Shown: positions 12,460-57,400 of the stretch, piece after piece
Layout: each line of letters opens with the position of its first letter
How positions within the stretch are numbered: the stretch's first letter is position 1
Assembly (NCBI RefSeq): GCF_002775205.1
Contig: NC_036454.1
Coordinates: forward strand, 8,251,882 to 8,315,881
DNA: 64,000 nt
Direction: 5' to 3'
Source of the DNA: Xiphophorus maculatus
Taxonomy: Eukaryota; Chordata; Actinopteri; Cyprinodontiformes; Poeciliidae
Program-made: the position numbers and the translations under genes
The notes under the pieces: model-generated
The model's database searches: none
Told to the model about the DNA's origin: nothing
Seen by the model: the letters and a program-made list of their open reading frames with translations, nothing else

Positions 12460-15400
12460 ATGGAGCTGCGTCTCTCCGTCTGCGTCCTGCTGCTGCTTTG
12501 TGCAACCAGAAGCTCAAATGGAGGGAAGATTTTGGTGTGGTACACTGAGGCCAGCCACTGGATCAACATGAAGCCGGTACTGGAAACACTGGTGGACAGA
12601 GGACACCAGGTGACGGTCCTGATCCCGAGTGCGTCGATGTTCATGAACAGCAGCGAACCGTCTCGCTTCCAGTACGAACCTTTTAATGTTTCCGTTCCAT
12701 TAGAGGATATGGAGGATCTTTTGGAGGAGTTTAATCAGTTCTCTATGTACGAGATAGATCACATGAACTACTTCCAGATTTATATCAAATATATGAATAT
12801 TATGAGAACTGACCTACAGAATAGTCTCAAGATGCTAGACGGTGTGGTGAAATCAGAAACCCTGATGAAGAAACTGAAGAAGGAAAACTATGACCTGCTC
12901 TTTGCTGATCCCCTCCTGCCTGGCAGTGACCTGACAGCAGACATGTTGGGAATCCCTCTGGTCTTTTCTTTACGTTTTTCCTTGGCTCATAACTGGGAGA
13001 GGATGTGTGGTCAGCTTCCTGCTCCTCCATCCTTCGTCCCTGGAGTTATGAGCAAACTCACGGACAAGATGGATTTCTCAGAGAGACTGTGGAACGTCCT
13101 CTTCTACGCCCTGCAGGACGTCGTGATCGACCATGTTATGTGGAATATGTTCGATGAATACTACTCAGAAGTCAAAGGTGAGCAATTCAACAAGAATCCT
13201 CAACATACATAGCTCCCACAAGTCTGAGCCGCAAGTGATCCGTGCCACTGAACCGCCATCTTGGTAGGCAAACGCAGCACAAAGGATAGGTGAAACATGT
13301 CTGTGAGAGACTGACAAAAAGAAAATATGGGAAGAAGGTTTAAAACTTAATAGCTGTAATGTCCTTAATTGTTTCCAAGCTAGTTGCTTGTGGCTTGTTT
13401 ATTGCTGTCATAGCAACTCCATAGCAACAGTTCGTGTCCGATACCTACCAAAATGGCTGTGAGCTACAAAGTTCCTGGAGAACTACGTATGTGTACACTT
13501 ATGCGGCACATGAAGTTTGGAAATTGTTTTAGGGGAAGTTTACTACATGAAATGCTTTGTATCAGGAACACCCACCAGTGCCTGTGAGTTGATGGGTAAA
13601 GCTGATATCTGGTTGCTGAGAACCTACTGGGATTTTGATTTTCCTCGTCCGTTCCTCCCCAACTTTAAATTTGTTGGAGGGATCCACTGCAAACCAGCTA
13701 AACCTTTACCAAAGGTAGGACTTTTTAAAAACAATATAAATGAATTGCATTCTGTCTCCATAGAGAACCAAACCCACTGACTCTAAAACTTTACTGATAT
13801 TTCAGGACATGGAAGAATTTGTGCAGAGCTCTGGAGAGAATGGCATCGTGGTCTTCACGTTAGGATCCATGATTAAGAACGTAACTACAGAGAAGGCGAA
13901 CCTAATAGCTTCAGCCCTTGCTCAGCTTCCCCAAAAGGTTGGTAATCTGTCCAATGTTTTCTCCAAATGACCTACATTTATCGTCTGATGCAACTTTTCC
14001 AAACTTGGCCCTGATCAGACGGGTGCTGAGACTCACCTACAGGTTTATTGGCTTCATAGGTAACTGTTCACTACTGGCACAAGCAGAATCTAACATTCAA
14101 TTTATCTGACCGTTATAAATGTAGTAGAAAATCTCATTTTCGATACAAACTGCTTCCAACTTAAAAAATGTCTTAAATTTAACAATTTTTTAACTTTCTA
14201 AATGTTAACTATATCCTTTCTCTTGTTTAGGGTTGCTGTAGTTTGATATAAAAGGATGTCCTTAATAAATTAATTATAGCGCTGGACAATATGGCTGAAA
14301 AAAATTTCACAATACATGTTTCATATCAGTCAATATCAATAATTATTGATTTGTTTTTGTTTTAAATATCTGAAATACTGTTTTTTATTGTTAAGCTAAT
14401 ATGAGGCACAGTGGCGAAACCTTAAACTGCTGCTAAACAGATTGTTGCTAGGTAACCACAAATTACTCAGCAAGTTGTTGCTGGGCAACTAAAGAGTGAG
14501 TGAGTTAGTTGATGCTACCAACCTCACTGCAAAAACACAAAATCTTACCAAGTGTTTTTGGTCTAGTTTCTAGTGCAAATAGCGTAGTAAACTTGAAATA
14601 GGACAAAACTAACAACATATAGAAATGTGTTTTGAGTTAACAATTATTGATTTTGATATTTGATCATGTCTATATATTGTTACTTATTTATTGCGAGCCC
14701 TACATTGTGTCGTTGACTTTACAGCAATCCCTCTTATTGAGCATGCATATAGCAACAGTGGAGAGGAAAAACTCCCTTTTAACAGGAAGAAACAAGTACA
14801 AGCAGCCATTTAAATGTACCTGATTGATGAAGAAAAAAAATGTCCGGAGGGTTGGGCAATGTTTTTACAAGATAAAGTAGTTTAAATACTCAATAGAGAC
14901 AGAAAGGTTCATCGATTTCATAAGCAGGATTTTGATTGACAATATGAATGACAATACTCAAATTTTCCGAATCTCCCGGCTCATCAATATGCAAGGATTG
15001 AAACATCAAAAACATTTAAATTCTGTTAAGCTTTCTCTAGATTCTGTGTTGTTTCTAGGTACTGTGGCGATACAACGGTGAAAAACCAAAAACTTTAGGT
15101 TCCAACACCAGGATATTTAGCTGGATCCCTCAGAACGACCTGCTGGGTGAGTGAAGTTTGTGTCATTCAGAGACAAACGCCGTGTCAGCAGAAATGTTGG
15201 GTTGACATTTGTGCGGTCAGACTGCCTGTTTTTGCTGCCAACACTGAAATGTAACAAAGGTGCTCAGCAGAAGTTACTGCAGAGTTCAAGTTATTGATTG
15301 AATAAAAATAAATAAAAGCCAACTTACTGTTTAAAAGAAAAACACGCCATTCGCCAAATCCTGTACAGTATAAACATGGGTCAACTCACCGCTTGGCTTA

Positions 15401-16377
15401 AGACCATTGAAATGTCTTTATATTAAACAGCTTTTATCATTATACGTCGCTGACCTTCGATGGCTTTAGTTTGAAAATTAACTCACACTCACGTGTTTCA
15501 TGCTTTGGTTTCTACCAGGTCATCCTAAAACCAAAGCTTTCATCACTCATGGTGGGACAAACGGGATCTATGAGGCCATCTACCACGGCGTTCCCATGGT
15601 GGGAATCCCCATGTTCGCTGACCAGCCAGACAACATGGTGCACATGGAGGCCAAAGGAGCTGCAGTCATTCAGAACCTGAACTTCATGACAACCGAAAGT
15701 CTCAGAGATGCAATCAAGGCTGTCATTAATGACAAATCGTACGTTTTGAATAACAGATATCAAGAAATTATCAAATCAGTTCATTTGGACGACGCAAAGG
15801 TTTCAGTTTTTGAAGAATTCGACAATACAAGTTTCTCCCAATGAATTTGCATATCACTAAGAGAACCAAGAATCGTGATCTAATTTCTGTACACACAAAA
15901 AAAATCACAACGTTTAGCTTTGTAAGCGTAAATGTAAACATCCACATTTTCAAAATTGTTAAAGCGAAAAGGTGCTATTGTCTCTAGGATGCACCTTTGA
16001 ATTGTTGTAAAGGGTTAAAAATGGCTGCTAACATGGCAATCTCCCTATTTGATGAGTTAAAAACTGACAAGTACTTGTACAAACTCATCCACAGATACAA
16101 AGAAAATGCGATGCGACTGTCCAGAATCCACCATGACAGACCCATGAGTCCTCAGGACGAGGCCGTCTTCTGGATCGAGTTCACCATGAGGAACAAAGGA
16201 GCCAAGCACCTGAGGGTCCAGGCCCACGAACTCACCTGGTACCAGTACCACAGCCTGGACGTCCTAGCCTTCCTCCTCATTATAGATCTGCTCCTCATCT
16301 TCATCCTCTTCAAGAGCTGCAGCTTCTGTTTCAAGAGATGCTGCAGCAGAAAACAGACAAAGAGAAAAGCTGAGTAA
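12460..16377 (+). CDS. UDP-glucuronosyltransferase, UGT2 type, copy 3 (complete)
   Basis: This is a recent tandem duplicate of copy 2 with exactly the same layout shifted by 8832 bp. Exons are 12460-13177, 13566-13714, 13806-13937, 15059-15146, 15519-15738 and 16095-16377, encoding 529 aa. It has the same signal peptide, UDP-glucuronate signature, C-terminal helix and dilysine-like tail as copy 2. Only three amino-acid differences from copy 2 are visible: Asp to Asn in KYM(D/N)IM, Lys to Glu in MFD(K/E)YY, and Leu to Gln in MSP(L/Q)DEA. The 3.9 kb aligns without an indel, yet the start of intron 5 carries a dense cluster of substitutions. A poly(A) signal lies at 16527-16532. The gene is convergent with rexo1. 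Confidence 0.94.
14277..14702 (+). mobile_element. hAT-like MITE in UGT copy 3 intron 3
   Basis: This is the duplicated counterpart of the element at 5445-5870, with the same termini and internal block. It differs by a single visible base near the right end (GATCATG against GATCACG). Confidence 0.65.
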
Positions 16378-17794
16378 CAGACTTTAGATTTTACTTTTTG
16401 GGACCTGGTACCTGTGTTTGTTACCACTGGGACTGGCTTCATGCTGTGTTACTGTTAACAGAGATGTGGAAGCTAAGAAGTCAGAATTTTATGACGGACG
16501 TTTAAGGTCACAACAAAAAAGTCCAAAATAAAGTAACACAATTATGACAATAGATTACAAGAAAAAAACTTGTACAAGAATAAAGTTATAGAATAATAAA
16601 GTTGAAACTATATGGAAATAGTTATAATATATTGAGAATGTATGAAAATAGTCCAAATAAAATGACAAATATTTTGAGAAAAAAGTCATAGTATTATGAC
16701 CAATCAATGTTATTCCATTAGGTAGGTGAGGTGAAACTTTACATAGATACACAATAAATATAAATATAAAATGATCTAAAATGGCCCAGTGCTCATTATT
16801 TAAAATAGTAAAAACAGTAAAAACAGTAACTGACTCAAGTACAGTATACTCATTAGGACAAAATTAAAAGAAATATAAATATAACAATGCTACATTGAAT
16901 TTTGGGATCTTAAGGCGACGAAAACGAAGTCATAATATTACAAGAAAAAAGTTTTTAAAAATCTAAGAATAAAGTCACATTTCGAAAATAAATTCATATT
17001 ACGACATGATTCTCGTAATTTATTAATATATTTATATATTCAGGTTGCCCCAAATACTCCGTAGCAGAATTTCAATATGGCGACGCCCATTGTCTGCAAT
17101 TCCTTTACTGCACATACAACTTTAGAAGCGGTTTTCCTTTCTATAAAAAAACACTTGTAATTTCAATTTAGTATAAAAGCGCTACATATAACATTGATTT
17201 AAGACGCACTCTTGATTTTGTGTCTTGAGAAATAAATGTTTTTATTTCTCAATAAATAAAGAGAAATATTTGTTTTTTTTCTTACTGTTGATGCTAGGAG
17301 CTAGCGGCCATGTTGAAATGTGAAGTCCAGGGAACTAGTTGGAGTTGCTCCCAGTGGGAAATCCGACCTCTGATTGCATTCCAGTTAATTTTTCAGACTG
17401 GGAAATCGTTAATTCCCAGTTCCTGTACAACTGGAACAGCATCGGGTTTGTTGGCCTTTCCTGATTTGGAATGATGTCATTATACATTGCATCTGCGCTA
17501 ACTGGCTGCACCTGAAGCTAATTAGATATTATAAACTGAATTCTCGTTGGCTGGTTATGACTTAGGGAGGGACAACAAACAAAAACATTTATTTTATGCC
17601 TTTATTTGGGAACCACTTAGAGTAGCTTCATCCTTGAGTCTCATAAATATTCATATAGCTATTATACATGGGCTTTAACTCAAATGTCCAATAGCAGAAA
17701 ACATATCAAATTATAAACACAAATTAACAGCCCTACTTGTCTTCAAATAAACAATTATACATATCATGTTTCATGTATAATTAGTGGCAGTTCC
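16378..17794. other. Convergent intergenic region, UGT copy 3 / rexo1
   Basis: It contains the A-rich repeat block shared with 7.7-9.1 kb up to about 17387. After that come unique sequence with an imperfect CTGGGAAATCGTTAATTCCCAG inverted repeat and two TTTATT hexamers (about 17588 and 17601). Read on the - strand these are AATAAA signals that could serve rexo1, about 200 bp after its stop. I see no gene here. Confidence 0.5.
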
Positions 17795-38576: not shown

Positions 38577-40414
38577 ATGGTGGACTGGGACTATGACTAT
38601 CTGATCAAGCTCCTGGCGCTCGGCGACTCGGGCGTGGGAAAGACCACCTTCCTCTACAGGTACACGGACGGCAAGTTCAACAGGAAGTTCACGACCACGG
38701 TGGGAATTGACTTCAGGGAAAAGAGAGTGGTGAGTGCTGGGGAAGATAAAACTAGCTAAAGTCCTTCCATTATATAAACAAGTTCAATATGGAACAAAAA
38801 CATGCCAAGATACAGTAAATCATTTGGGTAATTCTAACTACGCTAAAACAAGAAAAGTTGGATCTGATTTGAGTTTTTATTCAGTTTATGTAAATATCTG
38901 ATTTCAACTGTATGTAATATGTGCCTAGAATTTCTACATCATATGTAAAATTGATGTTCTACATCAAAATTTCCCATGTTGCTGTCATTTTAGATGCTGT
39001 AACATATTACATCTAAAATGAAACAAGAGTTTGACCGTCAGAAAAACAGAACCTCCAGTCAGAGACTTCTCCTGCCCACAGCCATTACCATCTACAACTC
39101 TTTAATTAAATGAGTAACAATAACATTTAATTTCCCTTTGGGATCAATAAAGTATTTTCAACATTGAACATGGCTGACTAAACCACATCTCCTTGGAGTG
39201 AACCAATGTTAAACATGTTGGGGTTTGTTGTTGACTCTAAGGGACGTTGGTAATTTGGTGAAAGAAATGTAAAATTTGGTGTCACCAGCATAAGGCATAT
39301 TGGAATTATATAATCTGACCAAAGTGGAGAATAAAGATAATGAATGAAAGTGGCTCAAAGTTAGAGCCTGGAGGAACGCCCCTGATGACTTTTTTTCCAT
39401 CCTGATTAAAACAAAGTTGTCCTGGTTTTCCAAGCAAATGACGATGGAGTTCTGGTTTGGTTCAGGTTTACACGGGGACCGGTGCTGATGGGACGAGTGA
39501 GAGGAACTTCAGAGTCCACCTCCAGCTCTGGGACACAGCGGGTCAGGAGAGGTAAGTTTGACATTTTTGACATTGACTGTGTTAAGAAGATACTCTTTGC
39601 TAGCATGGTTAAATATCCTTCACTCCAAGGTTTCGCAGCCTCACAACGGCTTTCTTCCGAGATGCAATGGGCTTCCTGTTGATGTTCGACTTGACCAATC
39701 AGCAAAGTTTTGTTAACGTCAGGAACTGGATGAGTATGTTGTGTCTTCTCGTTTCCCTCCTGTTGATTCCTAAGCCTGGTTGATTCGCAGTTTCAGGTTG
39801 ATTGAAGCAGTTTCCCTGGTGTTTATGCAGGTCAGCTTCAGGCCAATGCGTACTGCGATAACCCAGATGTGGTACTTGTGGGCACTAAGGCAGACATCAG
39901 AGACACGAGGAACGTTAACGCCAAACTGGCCAGAGAGATGGCTGACAGATACGGGTGAGTGGAAACTGATCAGTCTTTATCAGTGAGGAAGATTGGCCTT
40001 TTATCTGTTGATAGGATTTTCTTCCTATCCCACTTTTATTATATTTAGCAACTGTCGGCTAAATCAGTGTTTTACCCTCTGTTTCAAAGTTTGGATGAGA
40101 TATCCTTTTAAAGACATTTAAGCAAAATAAAATGTAAAGATAAAAATATTTGTCTAGATCTCATGAAGTGTTTTGAAGATGATGCATCTTGTACAGTTTT
40201 GTGAAATGTTCCTGTTTCCTTCAGCATCCCCTACTTCGAGACGAGTTCTGTGTCGGGAGTGAATGTGGACGCCGCTGTGCTCACCCTGCTGAACCTGGTG
40301 ATGAAGAGGATGGAGCAGAGCACGTATGGGGCCCCTGGCTCTGAACCCAATGGGAGCCCCACCACCAGCCATGAGGTGGAGGAGGCCCCCATCAGGAGGT
40401 GGTGCTCCTGTTAA
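38577..40414 (+). CDS. rab27b: Ras-related protein Rab-27B
   Basis: This small GTPase controls docking of secretory granules, exosomes and lysosome-related organelles. Five coding exons: 38577-38729, 39466-39551, 39630-39733, 39831-39954 and 40225-40414. They encode 218 aa, the same length as human RAB27B. The P-loop GDSGVGKT is at 16-23, switch [13 protein letters not shown] at the end of exon 1, switch II DTAGQE at 74-79, and SS(V/A)-type G5 in exon 5. The C terminus is WCSC, a CxC double-geranylgeranylation signal. The G4 motif reads TKAD (T133) where Rab proteins normally have NKxD. Synteny with poli supports RAB27B over RAB27A. Poly(A) signals are at 40531 and 40585. Confidence 0.94.
39010..39170 (+). 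mobile_element. LINE 3' tail fragment in rab27b intron 1
   Basis: It contains CCATTACCATCTACAACTC and the typical tail AATTTCCCTTTGGGATCAAT followed by AAAGTATTTTC. A similar tail lies at about 49072-49110. Only a 3' remnant is visible, with no intact ORF. Confidence 0.55.
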
Positions 40415-43602: not shown

Positions 43603-45264
43603 TTATTTCAGTTTACAGATCTCGGCTGTGTCTCCGATGCTGAACCAGAGTTGTATTCCAGCGTAGAGCGGCTGAGTGAAGCTGGTCTGGACTCTGTGGA
43701 TAAGAGTCATGTTCTCTGAGACGTTGTAGAACGACAGAGTACCAGCTGGTTGGTCCAGGTAAACTCCAACTCTGGAGAACTCAGAACCAGGGATGGAAGT
43801 TCGGATGCTGTTGTACCAAAATTGATGATTGTTTGGGCAACAAAATAAAGACCAGGATTTGTCATTTTGTCCAAACACACTGTCTGTTTTATAGACATCC
43901 CTGTATGCGACTGCCACATAACTTCCTCGTCCTCCTTGTCCTCCCCACTGCACCTCCCAGTAACATCGCTGAGACAAACTCTGTTTACTCAGGATCTGGA
44001 ACTTAACTGACAACCGCTCTGGGTGATCGGGATAGAACTGACTTTGTTTCACAAGGGTCACCTTCCTGTTCCCCTCAGACAGTAGGAGGTTCATCTGAGC
44101 TGTGTTTGGATCCAAGGTGATTTCCTGTGAATATTGTAGGAAGTCATCTCTGGTTCTTGGTTCTGACAGTGGAAAATCCACCTCAGTGACTTTCAGTGAG
44201 ATGTTTGTCCATTTCTCCTTCAGGATGTCCTGCAGTTCATCTCTCAGCTTTGACAAGGCTGCTGTCACATCTTCAAAGTACCTCGGAGGACGAACATCGA
44301 TGCTGGATGAGTGTTTGGTCTCACTAAAAGCAGACAGTGAGGGGTATTTCTGCAGAAACTGGATGCGATCCTCTGTATGAGAGAGCTGCTCCAGCTCAGC
44401 ATCTTTCCTCTTCAGCTCAGAGATCTCCTGCTCCAGCTTCTCCTGAAGATCTCTGACTCGACTCACTTCAGATTCCTGCTGGGATCTGATCTGCTGCTTC
44501 ACCTCACAGCTTTTTTTCTGAATGAGACGCATCACCTCAGAGAAGATACTGTCATTGTTCTCCACTGCTTTATTAGCACAGTCGTTAATGGTGTTCACTT
44601 CCTGCTGAAGCAGCTTCATGTTTCTCTCTCCATCTTGAATTGTCTGCTGGATTTCTCCTCTCTTCACCTCCAGATCTTTCTGCTTCTCCTTCCTCTCTGC
44701 TGCAGCCGAAACCACGTCGTGACCTTTATGTTCATCCACCATGCAGACGTAACAGATGGTCTGCTCATCGGTGCGGCAGAACATCTTCATCACCTCATCG
44801 TGACGGGAGCAGATGTTGTCATGGAGCTGCTTGGAGGGCTGCACCAGCTGGTGCTTCTTTAACTGAGCCACGTCGTAATGAGGCTGCAGGTGTTTCTCAC
44901 AATAAGACACCAAACACATCAAACACGACTTTATAGCTTTTAGTTTCCTCCCAGTACAAATATCACAGGCCACATCTTCAGGTCCAGCATAACTCTGTTC
45001 AGTAAGTGAAGCTCCGAGTCCAGTCAACTGCTCAGTTAATCCTGCCAACATGATGTTTTTCACCAGGACAGGCCTTGGTGTGAAGGTCTGCCTGCACTGA
45101 GGACAGCTGTAGACGCCTTTCTTGTTCTTTTCATCCCAGACGTTTTTGATACACTTCAGGCAGTAGCTGTGTCCGCAGGGAATCATCACCGGATCTTTCA
45201 GTATATCCAGACAAACTGAACAGGAGAAATTCTTTCGGTCCAGCTGGACTCCTTTCTGCGCCAT
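43603..45264 (-). CDS. Fish TRIM E3 ubiquitin ligase (RING, B-boxes, coiled coil, PRY-SPRY), single exon
   Basis: This is an intact intronless gene of 553 aa. The C3HC4 RING uses C15, C18, C30, H32, C35, C38, C54 and C57. A first B-box-like zinc site is at about 100-131 (CDIC ... CLMC ... C..H) and B-box 2 at about 152-182 (CSRHDE ... CYVC ... H). A long coiled coil runs at about 190-295, and PRY-SPRY occupies about 360-553 (ITLDPNTA, YWEVQW, VGVYLDQ, LYAGI). The start at MAQKGVQL is chosen because it is the standard start of this teleost TRIM16/TRIM25-like group; the frame is open 30 nt further upstream but without an ATG. Such proteins form a large fish-expanded family, many linked to antiviral signalling. 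The specific target is unknown. Confidence 0.9.
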   Translation of the reverse strand: MAQKGVQLDRKNFSCSVCLDILKDPVMIPCGHSYCLKCIKNVWDEKNKKGVYSCPQCRQTFTPRPVLVKNIMLAGLTEQLTGLGASLTEQSYAGPEDVACDICTGRKLKAIKSCLMCLVSYCEKHLQPHYDVAQLKKHQLVQPSKQLHDNICSRHDEVMKMFCRTDEQTICYVCMVDEHKGHDVVSAAAERKEKQKDLEVKRGEIQQTIQDGERNMKLLQQEVNTINDCANKAVENNDSIFSEVMRLIQKKSCEVKQQIRSQQESEVSRVRDLQEKLEQEISELKRKDAELEQLSHTEDRIQFLQKYPSLSAFSETKHSSSIDVRPPRYFEDVTAALSKLRDELQDILKEKWTNISLKVTEVDFPLSEPRTRDDFLQYSQEITLDPNTAQMNLLLSEGNRKVTLVKQSQFYPDHPERLSVKFQILSKQSLSQRCYWEVQWGGQGGRGSYVAVAYRDVYKTDSVFGQNDKSWSLFCCPNNHQFWYNSIRTSIPGSEFSRVGVYLDQPAGTLSFYNVSENMTLIHRVQTSFTQPLYAGIQLWFSIGDTAEICKLK

Positions 45265-45299
45265 TTTTCCTCTCAGAGACGGTTTAAGTTTCACTTTCT

Positions 45300-47202
45300 G
45301 AGAAATGAGACCACCCTGATCTCTGCTCTACACGTCGTGAGTTTGTGCAATGAAGGTGCGTCAGCACTGGATTCGCTGACAAACTGTCTCTGGCTGGGAG
45401 GGAAGCAGGAAATCTGTTGACAGAGTGACTCTGTTTGAGAGGAGGAGAAATCAATGCAGTTTGACAAAGAACCCTTTGAACCCTTTTTACAACAAAACTT
45501 TAGTATCTAATTGATGTTTTCCTAGTTTCTTATGTCAAATCAATCGCTTGCTGAATATATGAGTCAGTTTATTGATATTTGGATTTCTCTTTGTATTTAT
45601 TTAATGTTTTTTAAATTACTATAAGAAAAACAGACATTATATCTAAATGCTTTAATCATATATATGAGCAAAGATTAAGATTAGCAATTTGATAATTACA
45701 CAGTTGTTGTTTGTACAGTATTATACACAAAGTAACTTGTTAACCACCATGGATAGACAATTGAGAACATACATTACTTTACTAACATAAATACATCTTC
45801 AATTTTATACATATAATGGACCTGTGTTATACATCTATGATACAAGATACTTTGTAACTGTCCTCTAATCAGATATCACGGGGACAATAACGTATAACAG
45901 CCTAACGTCTTCAACTGAGATGCTAACTGTTGCTAGCTTTTGGCCCCAAGAAATTAACGGTCGCACTAACGGTAGTTAGCATTTAGGCTAGCGGCAGTAA
46001 ACATTCACTTCTTATATACGGAAATATCTCAAAATAGAATTGATGTCAACAAAACACGGTACTAAAATTATAAAAATTAGAAAAACTAAATAAAAAACAA
46101 CCCACCTGTGAAAACAGAAAACATATTCTTTAGCAGTGGCTGCACTGTGCTGCTGACTCATCAGTCTTACGTGTTACGTTACGCGCTTTAAATCAGCTTC
46201 TTCTGCATAAGGCTCGGAAGTCAGTCTCTCTCCCATGCGCCACTACTGCCGTCTTTTGGTATAAATTGGTATTGTACCAAGTACTGGTGAATGTGAGCCA
46301 GCACCACATAGCGTAAGCAATCAAAGCAAAGGTAATAAAATAGAAAATTGTTGGGGTATCTTTGAATAGTTAAATAATTCTTGGTGCCACATATGAATGT
46401 ACAAGTTTATTTTTTAAAAGCCCAGAGATCAGCGATAACATCCGTCCTCCGTCTGCCAGTAATGAATCTATCCAGATAAAATAAGTTTTATTGGTTAAAA
46501 GTAGTTTCAAACAATCTGCCAGCATTTTATTGTCTTAAGTTCAAACTTGTTCATACATTTTTAGTGGAAAATTTTGCTTTGTGAATGTGGGTTTTTGTAG
46601 CATAAGAACTATTTCATATCAGATTCTGCACAGATGATGAGTGTACTGGTGAGACAGGATATAAAAGTAATCTTTCATCAAGAAATACTTTAATTTATTG
46701 GAATAATCCAGGAGCGGACATTTTTTCAGTCACATTTCAGAGATTTCAGCTCTGCTGTGCCACCTGCTGGTTCAACCAGTCACTGCAGGTTAACGTTTCT
46801 TCAAACATTAGCAGGACTCCCTTTATACATCTTTTATTTTAATTTTATTGTATTAAACTTTCAAAATGTCTTCTGTGTTTTGAAGTGGTGGCATCTTGAG
46901 CCTTTTTTGTGCTCTACTCAGAGGAACTACCCATTGCATCCTGGGAAGGGTAATAGCGTAGGAATGCATAAATCAAAGTTGATCAAAACAGTTGATCAAA
47001 ACATCAAAACAGTTATTTATCGGTTCTATCTGCCACATAGAAATCTGTCCTGACAAAAAAAGCACGGTGTAAACATGCCCAAAATATTAAATGTATTCTT
47101 GCCAAACATTTTTCTCAGATGTTTCATTCAAACATGACAGGAGGCTGATCAATAATTGAGAAGGCTGGCAATAAGGTTACATCTAAAAAATTAGGAAAGT
47201 CT
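45300..47202. other. Intergenic, TRIM upstream region
   Basis: No gene recognised. It includes the presumed TRIM promoter (45.3-45.5 kb, relatively GC-rich). The rest is AT-rich sequence with scattered GCTAGC-type repeats at about 45.9-46.0 kb. Confidence 0.4.
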
Positions 47203-47732
47203 CAACAGAGTGAATATTTAAACTGACAACAGATGTTGAGTTTTTCCACCAATAAAAAGTCATGATAGCAGCTCACCGCGGCTGCGTGGTGTCCGTCTCT
47301 AGGCAACCGTGACATTCAGCGTCGGTCCGTAGCGTTCAGGGGTCCTTTAGCTCCCGCTTCGACAATGTAGCTGAGATTAATATTTTCTGTGTTTTATTTG
47401 GGCCATTATTGTTAAACTTGGTGTTGATGTGTGTATTATAGGCGCTTCTATCGGACAGTTATTTATCGGTTCAATACGGGACGCACATTTAACGGCCAAA
47501 TATGGGACGACTCTGTGTTTTACGGGATGGGTGGCGATCCTGTTCAGGGGTGGTGAGAAACAGGGCTAGAATCGCCACTGGTGACCGTTAAAGTTTCGCT
47601 TTGTGACAAGTGAAACTAGTCTGAGCTCCAACGAGTCTTTAACTGAACAACTTTTAAAAAAGCTGTACTGGACCCGTTTGCTGGCTGAAAAAGCTTAAAC
47701 TCCCCTCAGAGATCACGTCGCCGGACTGTTAC
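47203..47732 (+). repeat. Direct repeat A, left copy
   Basis: This 530-bp sequence, from CAACAGAGTGAATATTTAAA to GCCGGACTGTTAC, recurs at 53282-53812 with about eight differences. It is CpG-containing, not terminally TG...CA, and has no primer-binding site next to it, so it does not look like an LTR. It is followed directly by a hAT left terminus. Confidence 0.9.
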
Positions 47733-48650
47733 TAGTGATGTGTCGGTCGCTAACGATCCGGCTCTAAGAGCCGGCTCTTTGAAGTGAACGATTGGAACCG
47801 GCTCCACAACGGGAGCCGTTTTAGGATCCTATTTGGGAGCCGGGTTTTTTTCTACAGTATATCGCTGTCTCTCCGCCTCCCTGTCGTTGTGCTTGTGCTC
47901 TGCAAGTGCCAGAGCCGATAGTTTTTCCCCACATCGTTTTTTTTTTGTCCTGCGGTGCCTCGCTGTCTCTCCCCCTCTTCTCCCTCTCCTTGCGCGTTTT
48001 GCTCTTCTGCCAGTGCCAGAGCGGAGAGTTTTTTTCCCTCGCTCGGTCCACTGCCCTCATGTCAAGCGTGTGCTCCACACATCTGACCAATCACACATAG
48101 TTTCAATTAATAATGTGGCGGGAAAACACTGAAAAAAAAGTTTATCTCCACTTTTTTTGTGGAAACGGCAGGCAGTTGGCCAAGCTGTATAGCGTTCATC
48201 GGCAGGTGTTTATGTACAGACACTCACTCAGCGGTCAAGAAGCACAGAAAGAAGGGGAGTCAGTGTGAGAACTGAATAGGTGAAAATAAATGAGTGACAG
48301 AAAACAGAGCAAGATTTGGACTCATTTTAATGCTACATCAAGCTCCAGGGCAGAGTGCAGACTGTGCAAAGTCAGCATTTCCTATCGTGCAGGCTCAACA
48401 AACAACCTGCACAGGCACATGCGGACATCACACGCATCGGTATTGCTATAGCATTGTTATGCGGCATTTTTACTCATCATAAGTGCTTAACAATGTAAAT
48501 AATGAAACAAAATATTATAAAATTAGGTTTAAGCTATTAATTAATTAATAATGTCAAAAATATATATGGGGAGCCGAAAGAGCCGGCTCTCCACAGTAAG
48601 AAGAGCCATTAGAGCCGCATCTCGAAAAGGAGCCGAAAATCCCATCACTA
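47733..48650 (+). mobile_element. hAT element 1 with remnant BED-finger exon
   Basis: Left terminus is TAGTGATGTGTCGGTCGC and right terminus is AAAATCCCATCACTA. Subterminal GAGCCGGCTCTT motifs occur near both ends. The adjacent octamers (ACTGTTAC and AATGACAC) do not match, so one flank has been rearranged. The interior keeps a short transposase-derived BED exon. A near-identical but internally different copy is at 52379-53280. Confidence 0.8.
48290..48451 (+). pseudogene. BED zinc-finger remnant of a hAT transposase
   Basis: A 53-codon frame from ATG to TAG begins MSDRKQSKIWTHF. It shows the BED-finger pattern: an aromatic start (IWTHF), C-x2-C (ECRLC), then H-x4-H with NLHRH and RTSH. hAT/ZBED transposases carry this finger at the N terminus to bind transposon ends. 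The catalytic part is absent. Whether it is translated is unknown. Confidence 0.65.
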
Positions 48651-49540
48651 AATGACACTGCTCTATGTAAGTTTAGCTGTGAGCTGATGGGCTGCAGATT
48701 CGCCGAATTATTTTCTAAGCCCAAGTTAAGTTTTGGTGGGTAAAATGTTTGTTTTCCTGTAGAAAAATATCTATCTATTGTCACATGAAGAAAAAGCAAC
48801 TTAAAACATAATGTCTCTCTCAGTACATATATTTTTAAAGTCGTCACTGTCTACTAAATTCCCATCAGCACATTCGACATAACCGCCAACTGTGTGTACT
48901 CATTCACCGTCCGGCCGATGAATCATTTTGCAAAAGGGGCCGACGAAGCGGTGTGGGAAGAGACTGTCTTTAAAACACATAGCAGAGCATTTTTGATAGC
49001 GGCATGATATCAGAGACAATGACAGCGGCATTATATTCACCGCTGACAACAGACTTATGCAGTAATAAGTTAATTTCCCCTTGGGATCAATAAAGTATTT
49101 TTGAATTGAATACACCACTAGGACCACCTGCTGGTTAACACATAGTGTGTTATTTATCAAATTCCCACAGTCACTGACAAAAGCAACTGTTTAATCGATT
49201 TATTTGCTTTATCAAACATTTAAAGTGACTGTTTCCCAGCTTTTAATTTCCCTTTGTTGATCAATCTTAGTGAACAAAAGTTGATGTCATCTCAACTTTT
49301 GTTCTTGACCCAAAATCAAACCTTGTATTTATTTGAGTCACATGACCTAAGTTATCTTCCTTTAGAGGTTTTGCCCTCTTGCATGCTGCCCTAAGCAGTG
49401 GCCCCACAAAAGAGGACGATACCCACCCCTTATTTGGTATCTGCTTATTCTTCCTTCTTGACCAATTTTGTGTGTAATCATTTTCTTTGCATGAACTATA
49501 CAGAGGAAAGGTGATATTTTGTCACCTGCAACATTTATTT
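48651..49540. other. Unassigned segment between hAT element 1 and the minisatellite
   Basis: No gene seen. It contains a LINE-type tail (ATTTCCCCTTGGGATCAATA, about 49072-49110) and a 13-bp-arm perfect hairpin at 49272-49304 (GAACAAAAGTTGA / TCAACTTTTGTTC, 7-nt loop). Confidence 0.45.
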
Positions 49541-50645
49541 ATGGCCCGGAGACCAACAGGACTCGCTATGAAGCCCTGGAGGCAGCCCGGGAGACCGACA
49601 GGACTCAATACGAAGCCCTGGAGATCCGAGAGGAGACCAACGGGACTTGCTACGAAGTCCTGGAAGTCAGCCCAGAGACCAACAAGACTCGCTACAAAGG
49701 CCTGAAGGTAGGCCGGGAGACCAACGGTACTCGCGACTAAGCCTTGGAGGTAGGCCCGGAGACCAATGGGACTTGCTACGAAGCCCTGGGGCTGGCCGGG
49801 AGACTGACACGACTCGCTACAAAGCCCTGGAGGTCAGCCCGGAGACCAACGGGACTCAATACAAAGCCCTGGAGGTCTGCCAGGAGACCAACGGGACTTG
49901 CTACGAAGTCCTGGAAGTCAGCCCGGATACAAACAAGACTCGCTACAAAGGCCTGAAGGTCAGTCCGGAGACCAACAGGACTCACTACAAAGCCATGGAG
50001 GCCAGCACGGAGACCAACAGGACTCGCTACAAAGCCATGGAGGCCACCCCGGAGACCAACGGGACTTGCTACGAAGTCCTGGAAGTCAGCCCAGATACAA
50101 ACAAGACTCGCTACAAAGGCCTGAAGGTCAGTCCGGAGACCAACAGGACTCGCTACAAAGCCATGGAGGCCAGCACGGAGACCACCAGGACTCGCTATAA
50201 AGCCATGGAGGCCAGCCCAGAGACCAACGGGACTTGCTACGAAGTCCTGGGGCAGGCCGGGAGACTGACACGACTCGTTACAAAGCCCTGGAGGTCAGCC
50301 CGGAGACCAACGGGACTTGCTACGAAGCCCTGGAGGCAGCCTGGGAGACCGACAGGACTCAATACGAAGCCCTGGAGGTCTGCCAGGAGACCAACGGGAC
50401 TTGCTACAAAGTCCTGGAAGTCAGCCCGGATACAAACAAGACTCGCTACAAAGGCCTGAAGGTCAGCCCGGAGACCACCAGGACTCGCTACAAAGCCATG
50501 GAGGCCAGCACGGAGACCAACGGGACTCGCTACGAAGCCCTGGATGCAGACCGGGCGACCGACAGGACTCAATACCCCTGGAGGTCCGCCAGGAGACCAA
50601 CGGGACTTGCTACGAAGCCCTGGAAGTCAGCATGGAGACCACCGA
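49541..50645 (+). repeat. 42-bp minisatellite, about 26 units
   Basis: The unit is of the form GCCCGGAGACCAACGGGACT followed by CGCTACGAAGCCCTGGAGGTCA. Since 42 is a multiple of 3 and the unit lacks stops, several frames stay open on both strands. One frame reads a 14-residue repeat (SPETNGTRYEALEV) with an Asn-x-Thr in nearly every unit. Small +/-1 length changes shift the frame several times and there is no ATG at the start, so it is annotated as repeat, not as a gene. A higher-order repeat of four units (168 bp) is visible from about 49890 to 50220. Confidence 0.9.
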
Positions 50646-50687
50646 TAATCAAGCATGAAGCTTGGAGCCCTCATGACACTTCTTTAT

Positions 50688-51938
50688 TTAGAAGTACCAT
50701 CTTTCAATCCAGTACCTGAGAGTGCCTGTTAAGTACATTTTCAGAAGTATATTGGAGATGCCTCTGATCACTCTTCTGAATACAGTCGGCTGATTTTGTG
50801 GCTGGTCTGAAACCACCTGTTCTATTCTGTCCCTCAGCTGTTCCAATTCAAGCTGCAGGTTATTGTTTTCCTGCTCCAAGGTGGTGTTCTCCTTCTCCAG
50901 AGAGCTCTTCACTTGCTCCTGGTTGGCATTTATCAGCTCCAAGGTCTTGTTTTTCTGCTGCAAGTACTTTATTCTCTGCTCCAGGGCGGTACTTTTTTGC
51001 TCCAGAGGGGTGTTTTTCTCTTCCAGAGCGTTCTTTTCTTCCTCCAGAGCAGTCTTTTCTTCCTCCAGAGCATTTTTTTCTTCCTCCAGAGCGGTCTTTT
51101 CTTCCTCCAAAGCAGTCTTTTCATCCTCGAGGGCAGTGTTTTTCTGCTCCAGGGCAGTGCATTTCACCTCCAGAGCAGTGATAGTTAGCATCAGGGAGTT
51201 TTTTTTCTGCTCATGTTGCCTTCTTCTTAAATTGAGGTTGTGATGCAAGTGTCTGTTATCGAGCTCATAACCAAAGTTTTGCTGTTCCAAATGCCTTATT
51301 CTTTCCTCCAGGTGGGCATTTGTCCGCAATGTATGAGATAATCTCTCCCTCTGAACGGTGTTTTCCCGGTCTAATGTGGAAATTCTCTCCCTCTGAGAGG
51401 TGTTTTCCTGGTCTAATGTGGAAATTCTCTGCTCCAGGGTACTGATTTGAGTGGTGTATTTCTGCACCAAGGCAGTCTTTTCTTTTTCCAGGACCGTATT
51501 ATTCTGCTTTAAGATGATGTTTTCCTGATGTAGGGTATTTTTTTCCTTCTCCAGGGCAGTGTTTTTCTGCTCCAGGATGTTTTTTTCCTCTTCCAAGATG
51601 GTGTTTTTTTGCCCCAGTGCAGTGTTTTCCTGCTTCAATGCGGTGTTATCGTCCTGTAAAGTTTTGTTTACATCAAAGAGCTTTTTCAATTCCTTGTCTT
51701 TTGCAAGTGCAGCTTTTTCTGTGTCTATAACTTTATTCTTCAGCTCCTCGTTTGCGTTGATGAGTGACTGTCTCTCAATGGACATCATGTTAACTTCTTC
51801 CAAGATGCCATTTAGCTTCTCTGTCTCTCTTGCCAAGATCTGCTGTATTTCTTCATTCCCAGAATCAGAAGATGAAGCCTTATTGCACTGACTCACTTTT
51901 GATCCTTTTTGTCTGAATAAATCCAAAATCTGCCCCAT
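50688..51938 (-). CDS. Intronless ORF for a 416-aa coiled-coil protein of unknown function
   Basis: I do not recognise this protein. An ATG starts a 416-codon uninterrupted frame. Residues from about 55 to 385 are almost pure heptads of the type (E/K)NTALEQ / EKTALEEE, with Leu at d and mostly Asn or Lys at a. That predicts a long rod with a very polar core. Residues 1-40 are Ser/Lys/Gln-rich. The last 30 (VFRRVIRGISNILL ... YWIERWYF) are basic, hydrophobic and aromatic and might bind membrane or a partner. No transposase, RT or zinc motif is visible. Three TGATGTCA/TGACATCA sites lie 160-200 bp upstream, and AATAAA overlaps the stop (TAAATAAA). It sits inside the hAT-bounded, A-repeat-flanked segment. 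It could be a captured or retrocopied gene, or a lineage-specific gene. The open frame over 1.25 kb argues against chance, but the low-complexity repeat weakens that argument. Confidence 0.6.
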   Translation of the reverse strand: MGQILDLFRQKGSKVSQCNKASSSDSGNEEIQQILARETEKLNGILEEVNMMSIERQSLINANEELKNKVIDTEKAALAKDKELKKLFDVNKTLQDDNTALKQENTALGQKNTILEEEKNILEQKNTALEKEKNTLHQENIILKQNNTVLEKEKTALVQKYTTQISTLEQRISTLDQENTSQRERISTLDRENTVQRERLSHTLRTNAHLEERIRHLEQQNFGYELDNRHLHHNLNLRRRQHEQKKNSLMLTITALEVKCTALEQKNTALEDEKTALEEEKTALEEEKNALEEEKTALEEEKNALEEKNTPLEQKSTALEQRIKYLQQKNKTLELINANQEQVKSSLEKENTTLEQENNNLQLELEQLRDRIEQVVSDQPQNQPTVFRRVIRGISNILLKMYLTGTLRYWIERWYF

Positions 51939-52099
51939 GTTTTCCTTTATTTGTTTGTGAGGAATTCCTTTTAATCTTGAAAAACTTTCCTTTTCAAACT
52001 CTTGTTAGAACACAATCCTTCTTCTTGCTCTCTCTCTCTCTTCTGCAATGCTTATGACTGCAGAATTCAAGTGTGCAGCTTTTTGTGACTAGCTCTTTG

Positions 52100-52134
52100 T
52101 GACATCACTATGGTGATGTCACAAGTTGATGTCA
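52100..52134 (-). promoter_or_regulatory. Triple CRE/ATF-like sites upstream of the coiled-coil ORF
   Basis: TGACATCAC (52100-52108) and GTGATGTCA (52113-52121) form a 9-bp-arm palindrome with a 4-nt spacer. A third TGATGTCA follows at 52127-52134. The motif is one base from the CRE consensus TGACGTCA. Distance to the ATG on the - strand is about 160-200 bp. Confidence 0.5.
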
Positions 52135-52378
52135 CTATCTCAGCAGAACAACTAGAAAACTGCTGAAGTTTGGGAAGATAAGAACAACTGTGGCGAGCGT
52201 CAGTTGAGTTTACCCGGAGAGTGGGAGTTAGCTCAGACCTTTTTTGGTCAAAAGCAGCACAACAAAACTTAATACGCCATTATTAAATGGACCCGGGTCG
52301 ACCTGGGTCCAGCGGTGCAGTGCAACAGGGGCTTAGTGTACGTCTCTAGGCAACCGTGACATCATCATTGGTCCGAAG

Positions 52379-53280
52379 TAGTGATGTGTCGGTCGCTAAC
52401 GATCCGGCTCTAAGAGCCGGCTCTTTGAAGTGAACGATTGGAACCGGCTCCACAACGGGAGCCGTTTTAGGATCCTATTTGGGAGCCGGGTTTTTTTCTA
52501 CAGTATATCGCTGTCTCTCCGCCTCCCTGTCGTTGTGCTTGTGCTCTGCAAGTGCCAGAGCCGATAGTTTTTCCCCACATCGTTTTTTTTTGTCCTGCGG
52601 TGCCTCGCTGTCTCTCCCCCCCTTCTCCCTCTCCTTGCGCGTTTTGCTCTTCTGCCAGTGCCAGAGCGGAGAGTTTTTTTCCCTCGGTCGGTCCACTGCC
52701 CTCATGTCAAGCGTGTGCTCCACACATCTGACCAATCACACGTAACACTAAATATTATTTGATATTTGTATTGTGGCACCTTTTCTGTTATAAAGCTGCT
52801 TTGATACTTTTTCGTATTGTGGTGGGTGTTTGTATTTACATTTAACTGTTTAATTTATTTTAAGTTATTTTTGTGGAAGTGGTGCTATTTGGTGATAATT
52901 TAATTGGTTATAATAAAAGGTTTATTTATAAAGCATTGTTATGCGGCATTTTTACTCATCATAAGTGCTTAACAATGTCAATAATAAAACAAAATATTAT
53001 AAAATTAGGTTTAAGCTATTAATTAATTAATAATGTCAAAAATATATATGGGGACTCCCCATATATAGAGCGATATACTGTAGAAAAAAACCCGGCTCCC
53101 AAATAGGATCCTAAAACGGCTCCTGTTGTGGAGCCGGTTCCAATCACTTCAAAGAGCCGGATCGTTAGCGACCGACACATCACTAATAGGGAGCCGTTTG
53201 GGAGCCGAAAGAGCCGGCTCTCCATAGTAAGAAGAGCCATTAGAGCCGCATCTCGAAAAGGAGCCGAAAATCCCATCACT
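52379..53280 (+). mobile_element. hAT element 2 with inverted terminal insert
   Basis: The left part (52379-52743) is nearly identical to hAT element 1 and the right part (about 52933-53280) matches its right end up to CCCATCACT. The BED exon region is missing and replaced by unrelated AT-rich sequence. At about 53055-53200 an inverted copy of the element's own left end (ending GACACATCACTA) is inserted after a perfect palindrome. A short fragment resembling repeat A (52338-52376) lies just left of it. Confidence 0.8.
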
Positions 53281-53281
53281 G

Positions 53282-53812
53282 CAACAGAGTGAATATTTAA
53301 ACTGACAACAGATGTTGAGTTTTTCCACCAATAAAACAGTCATGATAGCAGCTCACCGCGGCTGCGTGGTGTCCGTCTCTAGGCAACCGTGACATTCAGC
53401 GTCGGTCCGTAGCGTTCAGGGGTCCTTTAGCTCCCGCTTCGACAATGTAGCTGACCTTAATATTTTCTGTGTTTTATTTGGGCCATTATTGTTAAACTTA
53501 GTGTTGATGTGTATATTATAGGCGCTTCTATCGGACAGTTATTTATCGGTTCAATACGGGACGCACATTTAACGGCCAAATATGGGACGACTCTGTGTTT
53601 TACGGGATGGGTGGCGATCCTATTCAGGGGTGGTGAGAAACAGGGCTAGAATCGCCACTGGTGACCGTTAAAGTTTCGCTTTGTGACAAGTGAAACTAGT
53701 CTGAGCTCCAACGAGTCTTTAACGGAACAACTTTTAAAAAAGCTGTACTGGACCTGTTTGCTGGCTGAAAAAGCTTAAACTCCCCTCAGAGATCACGTCG
53801 CCGGACTGTTAC
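53282..53812 (+). repeat. Direct repeat A, right copy
   Basis: This is about 98.5% identical to 47203-47732 by eye. It starts immediately after the right terminus of hAT element 2 and continues into 53813+ without a transposon, so this copy's right flank is probably the original context. Confidence 0.9.
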
Positions 53813-54060
53813 CTTATTTCACTCGCGCTTTCCGCTTCGCGTTCAAACAAGCAGGGCGTCACCAGCGTCATTCGACGCACTTTCCGGTCACAGAACGTTT
53901 CGCACGTAACCAACACCGCCATCTTGAAAGGGTCAATTTCTTAGAGAAACGACAAGAAATATGGTAGCTTTAGTAACTTTCCACACTTTCCGTGGAGTTT
54001 GTCGTAGTGTCGAGGTACATACTAGTAGGTACAAGATAGTTAACTTACAAACTCACATCA
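53813..54060 (+). promoter_or_regulatory. Promoter-like GC-rich patch without an identified gene
   Basis: It contains an ETS-type TTTCCGGT, several CpGs and CCGCCATCTTG (53917-53927, YY1-like), the combination seen at many vertebrate housekeeping start sites. No coding exon follows that I can identify; only a LINE fragment is found downstream. It may drive a non-coding RNA or be a relic. Confidence 0.3.
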
Positions 54061-54132
54061 CAACATCTCCACAGAGGAGAATTAAAAAAAAAATCCCCCA
54101 CCAAAAACAACATTAAACATGTTAACATTCAT

Positions 54133-54390
54133 GTGAAACAAAATTGTACAAATAAAATTCTACATAAAGTCAGTAGTAGCTGCAAACCTGAATACGTAGA
54201 CCCGTTGTCATTGTATCAACCTTCCAGATCATTCCGTTCTTCTAGTACAACTCTACTCTTCCTCCAAACATGGAGAAACAGCATTTATCTAATCTGGAAC
54301 AAACTTCCAGAAAACTGCAAAACTGTTGGAACACCAAGCTTCTTTAAATCAAGTCTAAAATCTAATATATTTAGAATTGCCTTTGATTAA
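54133..54390 (+). mobile_element. Non-LTR retrotransposon ORF2 C-terminal fragment
   Basis: The conceptual translation (PSRSFRSSSTTLL ... WNKLPENCK ... FKSSLKSNIF) matches the pattern at the C terminus of fish L2/CR1-like LINE ORF2 (RS..., WN.LP, FK..LK..L). No intact reverse transcriptase is present. Confidence 0.65.
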
Positions 54391-54419
54391 CAACACCTGG
54401 AAATTAGATTAATTGTTGT

Positions 54420-57400
54420 GTGGATTCCATTAATTTGCTTTTTTGCTACTGTGCCGTTTGTGGGGAAATACTGGCAGCTGGAAGAGGCAAAAAGTAATGT
54501 ATATTTTTATGCAGTGTATGCAAAGATAAGATTAAATGAAATCACACTTGAGACATAAATATTGTTATGAGTAGTTTTCTCAATGTTTCATGACCATGCT
54601 CAAATACAAGCAACGTCTTGTTTAAGTAGGTTGTTTACAGGGACTAAATAGAAGAATAAATGGTCTAAATGATAAAGATAGATGAGAGTGATATCCGTTA
54701 AAGAGGTAACGTTATCCAGAACTTTTCTCATGTATGGATACTAAAACAAAGATTTTATCACAGACAATTCAAACCACTTTTTTGGGTAAAGGCTATAGAA
54801 GTGGGAGCAATTATCAGGGTAACATTAGAATGAGAGATAGTTGGGTCCTGTACTAGAACGCTTGAAAAACAAGGTCTTACATGAACCGACTTTATTGTCT
54901 ATTTATTGTACTTTATTGTTTATTGTATAACGGTCTGAAAATCAAGACCAGTTAAGCCACAACCTCCCCTAAATCTGCAGTTAGTTTTTACTGTTAGTTT
55001 GAAAAGCCAGGTAAAATACCTTCAATCCACTTTTATTTTAAATTATACCAATTGCCCACAATTAAATCTATCTCTATAATATGTCTTACTTTATTTGTCT
55101 TAATTCAGTAAGACTTTTAAGATCTTATTGTCAGGTGTAAATAGAGACGTAAGTACAGTTCTGATCATTTGTTTACCATTGCTCATCATAAACACTGTTC
55201 ATTTTACAAAGGGAAAAAAATACAATTATACATCAAACAACTTATAAACGGAGAATTATTTGTTTTCCAATTGATGGAGAGAGCTAATGTTTCGTTCATA
55301 GAAATCTTCATTACATTTTAATTGTTTTGTGATGTTGTCAAGTTTTTCTATATAACCTCTGCTAAAGAGCGCTAAATGTTTGCTTGTCTAGAAATAGTCA
55401 TAAATTCACATGATTTCAATTTATTGTTGCAAAAAGACACAACGATGAATTTGGCAGCAAAAGGTCAGAAAAAAATATTTTAACATTTTTAGTGTGACCA
55501 TAAATACATATAGGTTTACAAGTATTGTGCAGGTAAGAAAAAAAAATTAAATAACTGATTTAAAAATTCCAGAATAATAGAAATAATAATAAATTGTGAA
55601 ATATATATAACTTAGCATTTTAAGACAGTCTTAGTGTGGAGATTGCTGATGCTTTGAAAAGTAGTCTGAATTATCTGGCAAAACTAGATTACTTTAAGAC
55701 TGTATATATTTTATCTTTTAGGCAAACTGGTAACACAACTCTGAACTGAGAAAAGCGCTTTTTATTGACACGCTGGAACGTTAATGGAAGGAATTTCGCA
55801 GGCACATAATGGCTATTTATCATGGAGTATAATTAAAACATTTATGACAGTTTAAGAACCATTGTTTTTTTCTTTTTTCAAACAAACCAGATACCACAGT
55901 CCAGTACATTGTTTATGGCATGTACACAAGCAGCCAAGCTTCCTTATGCATCATGAAACGAAGATGCCGTGCAGAGAAAACACAAATCCATGACTCTTAA
56001 AGGGGAGTTGGGACAGACTATGTGTAGTGATGCATTTCAAAATAAAAATACATTATGTGATACATGTCAGTGTCAGTTCATTTAATGCACAAAAAGCAAT
56101 ATACTGTTATTCTGGCTTTTACATTAACTGGCATTACAAGCCTTAAAGATTTTATTATAATGGCTAAATTTACACACATTCTATGTACCGGCATTTGACA
56201 TGAATTTGTACCGTCCAAAATTCATCCCAGAACCAGGAGATATTTCAAAGATATCCGTCCAAATGAAGGACATTCATGGAGCCATACCACATCATTATTT
56301 AGCAGAAGAAAGAAAAATATTTAACATCAATATTAAAGAAAAAAAAACTTTAAATCTTACCTAGTGCTTGATTTTATGCAGCATACAAAATCAAAAATTA
56401 GTGTCAGTCCCTTTATAAATGAACCACAGAAATTATTCCTATACATCTATGATATCAAGTAAGAGTCAATATGACAAACTGCAAATGTGTTGTTTCATGT
56501 GCAGTGAGGTATGAAGAAGTGTTTACTGACAAATTTAGTTTGTTTTTACTATTTTGAACACACAAACATGTTCCAGAAAAACTAAATGTACAACCTGATA
56601 AGAAACTTCTTTTTATATAATGTTGTTGCTAAATTCATTTATACAACAAAAAGCTGGACAGACCCTCAGAAATGTAAAAAATGAAACATTGAGAAAGTAA
56701 CTGCACCTATATCTAATTACCTAGTAACTATATCAGTGTGAAATTACATTTTCACATTGAGACAGGTTTGTTTATATCCTGTTTTCATTCATTACATAAA
56801 AGCATAATTTTTTCTCCACCAACATGATCTTCAATTAAAAAATTGTCTTATGATCTGAAACATTTAAGTGTGCCCAAAAAGAAAAACAAAACAAAAACCT
56901 ATATGAGGTAAAATATTTATCCACAGTAATGTTTTTGGCTTTAAGGAGAGACAGTAACGACAGTTCATATAGCTGTTTATGTCAATGTGAAACTTAGACA
57001 AATTAATAAAACTTCTGTGACAGGGTGGCGATGAAACACTAAAACAATTTAAACCTGAATGAATTGCTCTGTGTATTGAACATCAGCCAAAGTTGAAGCC
57101 TAAAATCATGTGGTAAATGTTTACTGTTTGGGTTCTTTCCCTGTTTCATGTTGGATTTGGTGGATTATTTCAGATAACATTTTAAAATAAAAAATTCTCT
57201 TGTATTTTATGTCGCGATTTTGGTCCACACCGCTTTATAGCAATAGGTTTGCTCTAGTTAGTCTCATAGAAAGATTTTGATTATGGATTATACAATAAGG
57301 AATATAAATGACTTCAAAATTCTAAATTTACCCTCAAACAATCTGCAAAAAGGTTTTTATAAAACTAGCCCAAATATATGTTGGCTTTCCATGCAATGTT

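What the first reader, a model, noticed from the sequence alone, without database searches (positions are those of the whole stretch)
47733..53280. A 5.5-kb segment bounded exactly by hAT termini and flanked by 530-bp direct repeats
Seen: repeat A ends and TAGTGATG (a hAT left end) begins at the next base (47733). The right end CCCATCACT of a second hAT copy finishes at 53280, one base before the second repeat A begins (53282). The whole interior, with a coiled-coil ORF and a minisatellite, therefore looks like one composite unit using the outer ends of two hAT copies. Known: hAT elements make 8-bp duplications, so a 530-bp flank is not explained by normal transposition. Inference: either staggered breaks filled in around an inserted fragment, or transposon-mediated segmental duplication, carrying cargo.
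Basis: partly seen in the sequence, partly recalled or inferred. Interest (0 to 1): 0.7.

Follow-up and report, generated by a model that had tools for sequence, protein, structure and literature searches.

The report
Transposon pair that duplicated its flank
A 5.5-kb piece of DNA with a gene-like stretch inside and transposon tips at both ends sits between two copies of a 530-base sequence in a way that ordinary jumping does not explain, but jumping with tips from two chromosome copies, or a later crossover, would.

Summary
Two direct repeats (A1 47203-47732, A2 53282-53812; 98.5% identical) directly abut the outer tips of two same-orientation hAT elements (hAT1 47733-48650, hAT2 52379-53281). 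The apparent one-base gap is hAT2's own last base. None of 21 pairs of 8-bp flanks matches; the best is 5 of 8. A CpG-rich stretch runs across the join of A2 and its right flank, so left flank-A-right flank looks like the native order and A like host DNA. Among the routes that I enumerated, standard insertion, insertion into an A-A tandem and exchange between flanking copies fail. Two give the observed order: hybrid-end (alternative) transposition of the whole composite to a site 530 bp away on an element-free chromatid, or a crossover inside the composite between chromosomes that carry it 530 bp apart. A two-haplotype assembly chimera would look the same. This kind of event is known (Drosophila P hybrid element insertion, maize Ac/Ds); a natural vertebrate hAT case with gene-like cargo would be new to me. 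The genome search was unanswered in 12 tries, so copy number and the empty site are untested.

The parts
47203..47732 (+). repeat A, copy 1; starts CAACAGAG, ends ACTGTTAC
   Evidence: 98.5% to A2 over 531 columns; 7 substitutions, 1 gap; CpG o/e 1.01
47733..48650 (+). hAT1, internally deleted hAT copy with BED zinc-finger frame
   Evidence: TAGTGATG at both tips; zf-BED E=3.2e-11 for the frame 48290-48451
48651..52378 (.). interior between the two hAT copies (3,728 bp), source unknown
   Evidence: defined by the hAT tips
49544..50641 (+). minisatellite, 42-bp unit, 26.3 copies
   Evidence: Tandem Repeats Finder
50688..52004 (-). open frame of 438 codons, coiled-coil-like; possible gene cargo
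   Evidence: only sub-threshold Pfam matches ZapB and Rod_CreS
52336..52378 (+). A-like fragment ending at the left tip of hAT2
   Evidence: 86.4% over 44 columns to A1 and A2; 26 of 27 in its core
52379..53281 (+). hAT2, a different internally deleted copy, same orientation; right tip CAGTGATG on the reverse strand
53069..53188 (-). extra inverted copy of the hAT left end inside hAT2
   Evidence: 99% complementary over 77 nt; left-tip 18-mer on the minus strand at 53168-53185
53282..53812 (+). repeat A, copy 2; starts CAACAGAG, ends ACTGTTAC
   Evidence: CpG o/e 1.02

Best explanation
Two nearby hAT copies in direct orientation, with 3.7 kb between them, acted as one composite transposon (C) that uses the left tip of hAT1 and the right tip of hAT2. 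C first sat at one edge of A. Transposase then took a left tip of C from one chromatid and a right tip of C from another and joined them to a target 530 bp away, at the other edge of A, on a homologue or sister that had no C there (hybrid element insertion, a form of alternative transposition). One product is left flank-A-C-A-right flank: A is repeated, there is no C outside, and no matching 8 bp lies beside C. The other product is a deletion of the stretch between the two sites. Shown here: the exact boundaries, the direct orientation, the lack of matching 8-bp flanks, the CpG-rich stretch that continues across the A/right-flank join, and that this route yields the observed order. Inferred: that it happened by this route, that C moved as a unit before, where the interior came from, and transposase activity.
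For: Both A boundaries coincide with hAT tips with zero offset. None of 21 pairs among seven 8-bp flanks matches; best same-strand match 5 of 8 (hAT1 left/right), best reverse-complement match 4 of 8, outer pair 1 of 8. In the label enumeration standard insertion fails in 2 of 2 cases, insertion into an A-A tandem in 4 of 4, exchange between flanking copies in 1 of 1, and hybrid-end insertion on an element-bearing chromatid in 6 of 6; hybrid-end insertion on an element-free chromatid gives the observed order from either starting edge (2 of 4 donor-target cases; the other 2 are plain insertions). CpG o/e is 1.01 and 1.02 in A1 and A2 and 1.56 in the 188 bp to the right, against 0.54 for the window; without the insert, CpG-rich bins start inside A and end about 240 bp into the right flank (first CpG at base 75 of A1). 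A1/A2 and hAT1/hAT2 differ to a similar degree: 7/530 and 10/576, Fisher p=0.63, or 7/567, p=1.0, if three mismatches at a deletion edge are dropped. Precedent: nine maize Ac duplications end precisely at Ac termini, and three natural maize cases involve other hAT families (PMC3744419, passages); Ac macrotransposons excise and reinsert (PMC9910405, passages).
Against: A crossover inside C gives the same order, and so would a chimeric assembly of two haplotypes; nothing here separates the three. The copy number of A, hAT and interior, and the empty site, are untested: the genome search did not complete in 12 tries. An earlier move of C as a unit is assumed. CpG richness alone does not mark A as host DNA, since hAT1 (0.79) and hAT2 (0.97) are also above the window mean, one of the seven A bins is poor (o/e 0.6) and one left-flank bin reaches 0.85. 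The A-like piece at 52336-52378 and the 18-bp exact match between left flank and A are not explained and suggest a longer history. I did not search the window for a hAT transposase beyond the 10 frames. The enumeration allows targets at the two A edges only and no later excision, so it is not exhaustive.
Confidence: 0.43

Rival explanations
1. Crossover inside C. C was present at the left edge of A on one chromosome and at the right edge on another (a local hop of 530 bp); an ordinary homologous crossover within the 5.5-kb C then joined left flank-A-C to C-A-right flank.
For: Gives exactly the observed order and the same flanks. C is long enough for homologous exchange. The eLife paper draws the similar model in which an Ac hop is followed by exchange between non-allelic Ac copies (PMC4270019, figure-legend passage).
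Against: Needs two C sites segregating together plus a crossover, so one more event than hybrid-end insertion. No direct evidence for or against was obtainable.
Confidence: 0.25
2. Assembly chimera: two real haplotypes, with C at different edges of A, were joined by the assembler into one false sequence.
For: Would look the same as the crossover product. A1/A2 differ by about 1.3%, which could be allelic; another 5.4-kb duplication in the window has similar identity, 98.6%.
Against: Needs the same 530-bp hop between haplotypes plus an assembly error; the window holds no N. No reads were available.
Confidence: 0.14
3. A is an older low-copy repeat, and A-C-A arose by recombination at A, for example integration of a circle carrying A and C, or exchange with another locus where C lies between A copies.
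For: An A-like fragment lies in the interior (86.4% over 44 columns) and 18 bp of A recur in the left flank. Circle integration through flanking repeats has been proposed for transposed Arabidopsis genes (PMC2869330, passages).
Against: Does not by itself explain why both A boundaries are exactly hAT tips; the A/right-flank join lies inside one CpG-rich stretch. No other full-length A copy is in the window.
Confidence: 0.1
4. A break with ends 530 bp apart (or breaks at two places on sister chromatids) was repaired by capture of an excised C fragment.
For: Would also give a direct repeat without an 8-bp target duplication. Staggered breaks making flanking duplications are described for Drosophila inversions (PMC2775673, passage).
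Against: End joining usually leaves loss, filler or microhomology (general knowledge); both joins here are clean to the tip. A 530-base overhang is long.
Confidence: 0.06

Closest known systems
[quoted passage not shown] 1996; Preston et al. 1996, known to me only as cited in other papers; Preston et al. was looked up and is not held)
   Same: Ends of two element copies on sister or homologous chromosomes insert together (PMC2775673, passages) and give flanking rearrangements (PMC3744419, passages), duplications and deletions among them (by the cited title).
   Different: Laboratory P elements, not hAT. Here a natural sequence and a two-element composite with cargo. [quoted passage not shown] that concerns inversions, not duplications.
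[quoted passage not shown]
   Same: hAT superfamily; direct duplication ending at transposon tips; one tip without a matching target duplication; natural repeats of 116 to 1262 bp in the maize reference genome.
   Different: Those repeats each begin with a hAT copy; here the left A copy has none, and a two-element composite lies between the copies.
Maize composite insertions and Ac macrotransposons (PMC4270019, abstract and passages; PMC9910405, passages)
   Same: Insertion bounded by tips of two elements with other DNA between them; macrotransposons can excise and reinsert.
   Different: The ones described are flanked by 8-bp target duplications; here the two flanks come from sites 530 bp apart.

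Membership tests
hAT superfamily (hAT1, hAT2) | short terminal inverted repeats of the hAT type | tested here: met
   five tips: 4 TAGTGATG, 1 CAGTGATG. That this is a hAT-type tip is recalled, not from a call
hAT superfamily (hAT1, hAT2) | 8-bp target-site duplication | tested here: not met
   no matching 8-mers at either element or across the composite. Absence is expected after hybrid-end insertion or crossover, so I claim hAT-like tips and not normally inserted hAT copies
hAT superfamily (hAT1, hAT2) | relation to a hAT transposase (BED finger, catalytic and dimerisation regions) | tested here: inconclusive
   BED finger in hAT1, E=3.2e-11; catalytic and dimerisation regions not found and not specifically searched
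Alternative (hybrid-end) transposition product | direct duplication whose inner ends coincide with transposon tips | tested here: met
   zero-offset joins on both sides
Alternative (hybrid-end) transposition product | reciprocal deletion, or single-site progenitor with its 8-bp duplication | not testable with these tools
   needs other haplotypes or relatives; the genome search not answered (12 calls)
Maize-type reversed-ends tandem duplication | a hAT copy in front of the first duplicated segment | tested here: not met
   the 5 tip matches in the window are at 47733, 48649, 52379, 53185 and 53280; none beside 47203
Macrotransposon inserted by standard transposition | same 8 bp on both sides | tested here: not met
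   ACTGTTAC and CAACAGAG, 1 of 8
LTR retrotransposon with A as its long terminal repeat | TG...CA repeat ends and a short direct target duplication outside | tested here: not met
   A reads CAACAG...GTTAC; outer 8-mers GAAAGTCT and CTTATTTC match at 2 of 8

The most novel reading that the evidence does not exclude
A natural, inherited product of hybrid-end transposition by a vertebrate hAT macrotransposon, which brought a coiled-coil gene into a CpG-island promoter and in the same step copied most of that promoter, leaving one copy on each side of the newcomer.
Probability: 0.33. Interest if true: 0.68.

Novelty: new member of a known kind. Interest (0 to 1): 0.45.

Why it matters
Alternative transposition is documented in maize Ac/Ds and in laboratory P elements. 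In the rows that my searches listed I saw no natural vertebrate hAT case. The searches covered open-licence PMC full text, and several lists were capped: 15 of 23; 12 of 283; 9 of 9; 9 of 9; 15 of 1,090; 12 of 20; 8 of 8; 10 of 15; 15 of 17,688. So this is weak evidence of absence. A clean vertebrate example would show that a cut-and-paste transposon can duplicate a promoter and bring in a gene in one rearrangement, and it gives a simple signature for genome scans: direct repeats whose inner ends abut outward-facing transposon tips without a target-site duplication.

Tried and rejected
Standard macrotransposon insertion: rejected, no matching 8 bp. Insertion into an A-A tandem: rejected, it would leave an extra 8 bp. 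Exchange between flanking hATs: rejected, it predicts outer copies. LTR element: rejected on repeat ends and flanks.

Searches that led nowhere: the 18-base left tip and a 31-base piece of A in viral contigs, 0 matches; a 23-base tip pattern in genome contigs, 0; A in plasmids, no match; Rfam over 44000-56000 at gathering thresholds, 0. These collections hold microbes, viruses, plasmids and RNA families, so they say little about an animal sequence. The BED frame matched one PDB sequence, a zinc finger BED domain containing protein 1, E=0.0051. Pfam on 10 frames: 7 held a match above a curated cut-off (UDPGT, IMS, UBM, TRIM-type, sialyltransferase, EloA-BP1, BED), the coiled-coil frame had only sub-threshold matches, and 2 had none. 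No animal genome was reachable. One paper search (10 allowed, 9 used) and the structure tools were not used.

Full report
What is there. The stretch 47203-53812 reads: left flank, A1 (47203-47732), hAT1 (47733-48650), interior (48651-52378), hAT2 (52379-53281), A2 (53282-53812), right flank. A1 and A2 are 98.5% identical over 531 columns. hAT1 and hAT2 have the same orientation and are different internal-deletion derivatives of one family: hAT1 keeps a BED zinc-finger frame; hAT2 keeps other DNA plus an extra inverted copy of the left end.

Which order is native. Each A copy has a transposon tip on one side and other DNA on the other, so left flank-A and A-right flank are most simply the original joins (inference). 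CpG content agrees in part. CpG observed/expected is 1.01 and 1.02 in A1 and A2 and 1.56 in the first 188 bp of right flank, against 0.54 for the window. With the insert and one A copy left out, CpG-rich bins begin inside A, cross the A/right-flank join and end about 240 bp into the right flank; the first CpG of A1 is at its base 75. Against too simple a reading: the hATs are also above the window mean (0.79 and 0.97), one of seven A bins is poor (0.6) and one left-flank bin reaches 0.85. So A looks like host promoter DNA, but its copy number was not testable.

What ordinary routes predict. A standard hAT insertion duplicates 8 bp. The 8-mers beside the tips are ACTGTTAC (hAT1 left), AATGACAC (hAT1 right), GTCCGAAG (hAT2 left) and CAACAGAG (hAT2 right). 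Over 21 pairs of seven flanks the best same-strand match is 5 of 8 (hAT1 left/right) and the best reverse-complement match 4 of 8; the two outer flanks match at 1 of 8. In an enumeration with labels, standard insertion into one A fails in 2 of 2 cases, insertion into an A-A tandem in 4 of 4, and exchange between flanking copies in 1 of 1. Hybrid-end insertion fails in 6 of 6 cases when the target chromatid bears C, and succeeds from either starting edge when it does not. A crossover within C between chromosomes with C at the two edges also succeeds. The enumeration allows targets at the two edges of A only and no later excision, so it is not exhaustive.

Choice between the routes. I prefer hybrid-end transposition because it needs one C site and one reaction, and because duplications that end at transposon tips are a mark of alternative transposition: all nine maize Ac duplications of one study end precisely at Ac termini, and three natural cases (116 to 1262 bp) beside other hAT families were read in the same way (PMC3744419, passages). 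The definition that fits here, two copies on sister or homologous chromosomes, is that of hybrid element insertion (PMC2775673, passage). Crossover within C is a serious rival, and a chimera of two haplotypes would look identical. The odds (0.43, 0.25, 0.14) are judgement; together these three readings, all of which place C at both edges of A, hold about 0.8.

How C arose. If hAT1 and hAT2 were once separate insertions, AATGACAC and GTCCGAAG would be what is left of their own target duplications, and the pair later moved as one, as Ac macrotransposons do (PMC9910405, passages). This is inference. The interior's source is unknown. Its frame of 438 codons is unlikely to be open by chance (7e-10 under uniform codons; its repeats make that figure too strong), and Pfam gave only sub-threshold matches. 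Expression is unknown.

What does not fit neatly. An A-like piece (86.4% over 44 columns, 26 of 27 in its core) ends at the left tip of hAT2, and an 18-bp exact match links the left flank (47009-47026) to A (47455-47472). The model explains neither. A1/A2 and hAT1/hAT2 differ to a similar degree (7/530 and 10/576, Fisher p=0.63; 7/567, p=1.0, if three mismatches at a deletion edge are dropped); this is compatible with similar ages but does not date the event.

The organism. Pfam hits (UDPGT, sialyltransferase, TRIM with PRY-SPRY, Y-family polymerase domain) and CpG depletion suggest a vertebrate. That it is a fish is recalled from general gene content and repeats; no call shows it.

Verdict. 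A real and precise structure, best read as the product of alternative transposition of a two-hAT composite. The kind of event is known. A natural vertebrate case with gene-like cargo was not among the rows listed by my paper searches, several of which were capped. Without the genome, relatives or reads it is a good candidate, not a proof.

Noticed in passing
53069-53188: Inside hAT2, near its right end, lies an inverted copy of the family's left end (99% complementary over 77 nt), joined through a short palindrome (53043-53067); it looks like abortive gap repair after an excision.
   Followed up: partly
47295, 52342 and 53375 (minus strand): A1, A2 and the A-like fragment all hold GTTGCCTAGAGAC, which fits an RFX X-box-like pattern (recalled motif); the loose pattern has 33 matches in the window, both strands.
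   Followed up: partly
47009-47026 and 47455-47472: 18-bp exact repeat between the left flank and A (E=8e-6 in a local comparison); unexplained.
   Followed up: no
53813-53930, minus strand: Open frame starting at AAGATGGCGG (YY1-like, recalled motif) and reading AAATAAG just before GTAACAG of A2, so the A/right-flank join may be an exon-intron border; inferred from sequence only.
   Followed up: no
3166-8559 and 12000-17386: 5.4-kb direct duplication at 98.6% holding UDP-glucuronosyltransferase-like frames; nearly the same identity as the A pair.
   Followed up: no
52097-52124 and 52288-52311: Two near-perfect palindromes (28 and 24 bp) between the coiled-coil frame and hAT2.
   Followed up: no
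49070-49110 and 39127-39168: A 42-column match at 90.5% between the interior and a place 10 kb upstream; it resembles the 3' end of a fish LINE from memory only.
   Followed up: no
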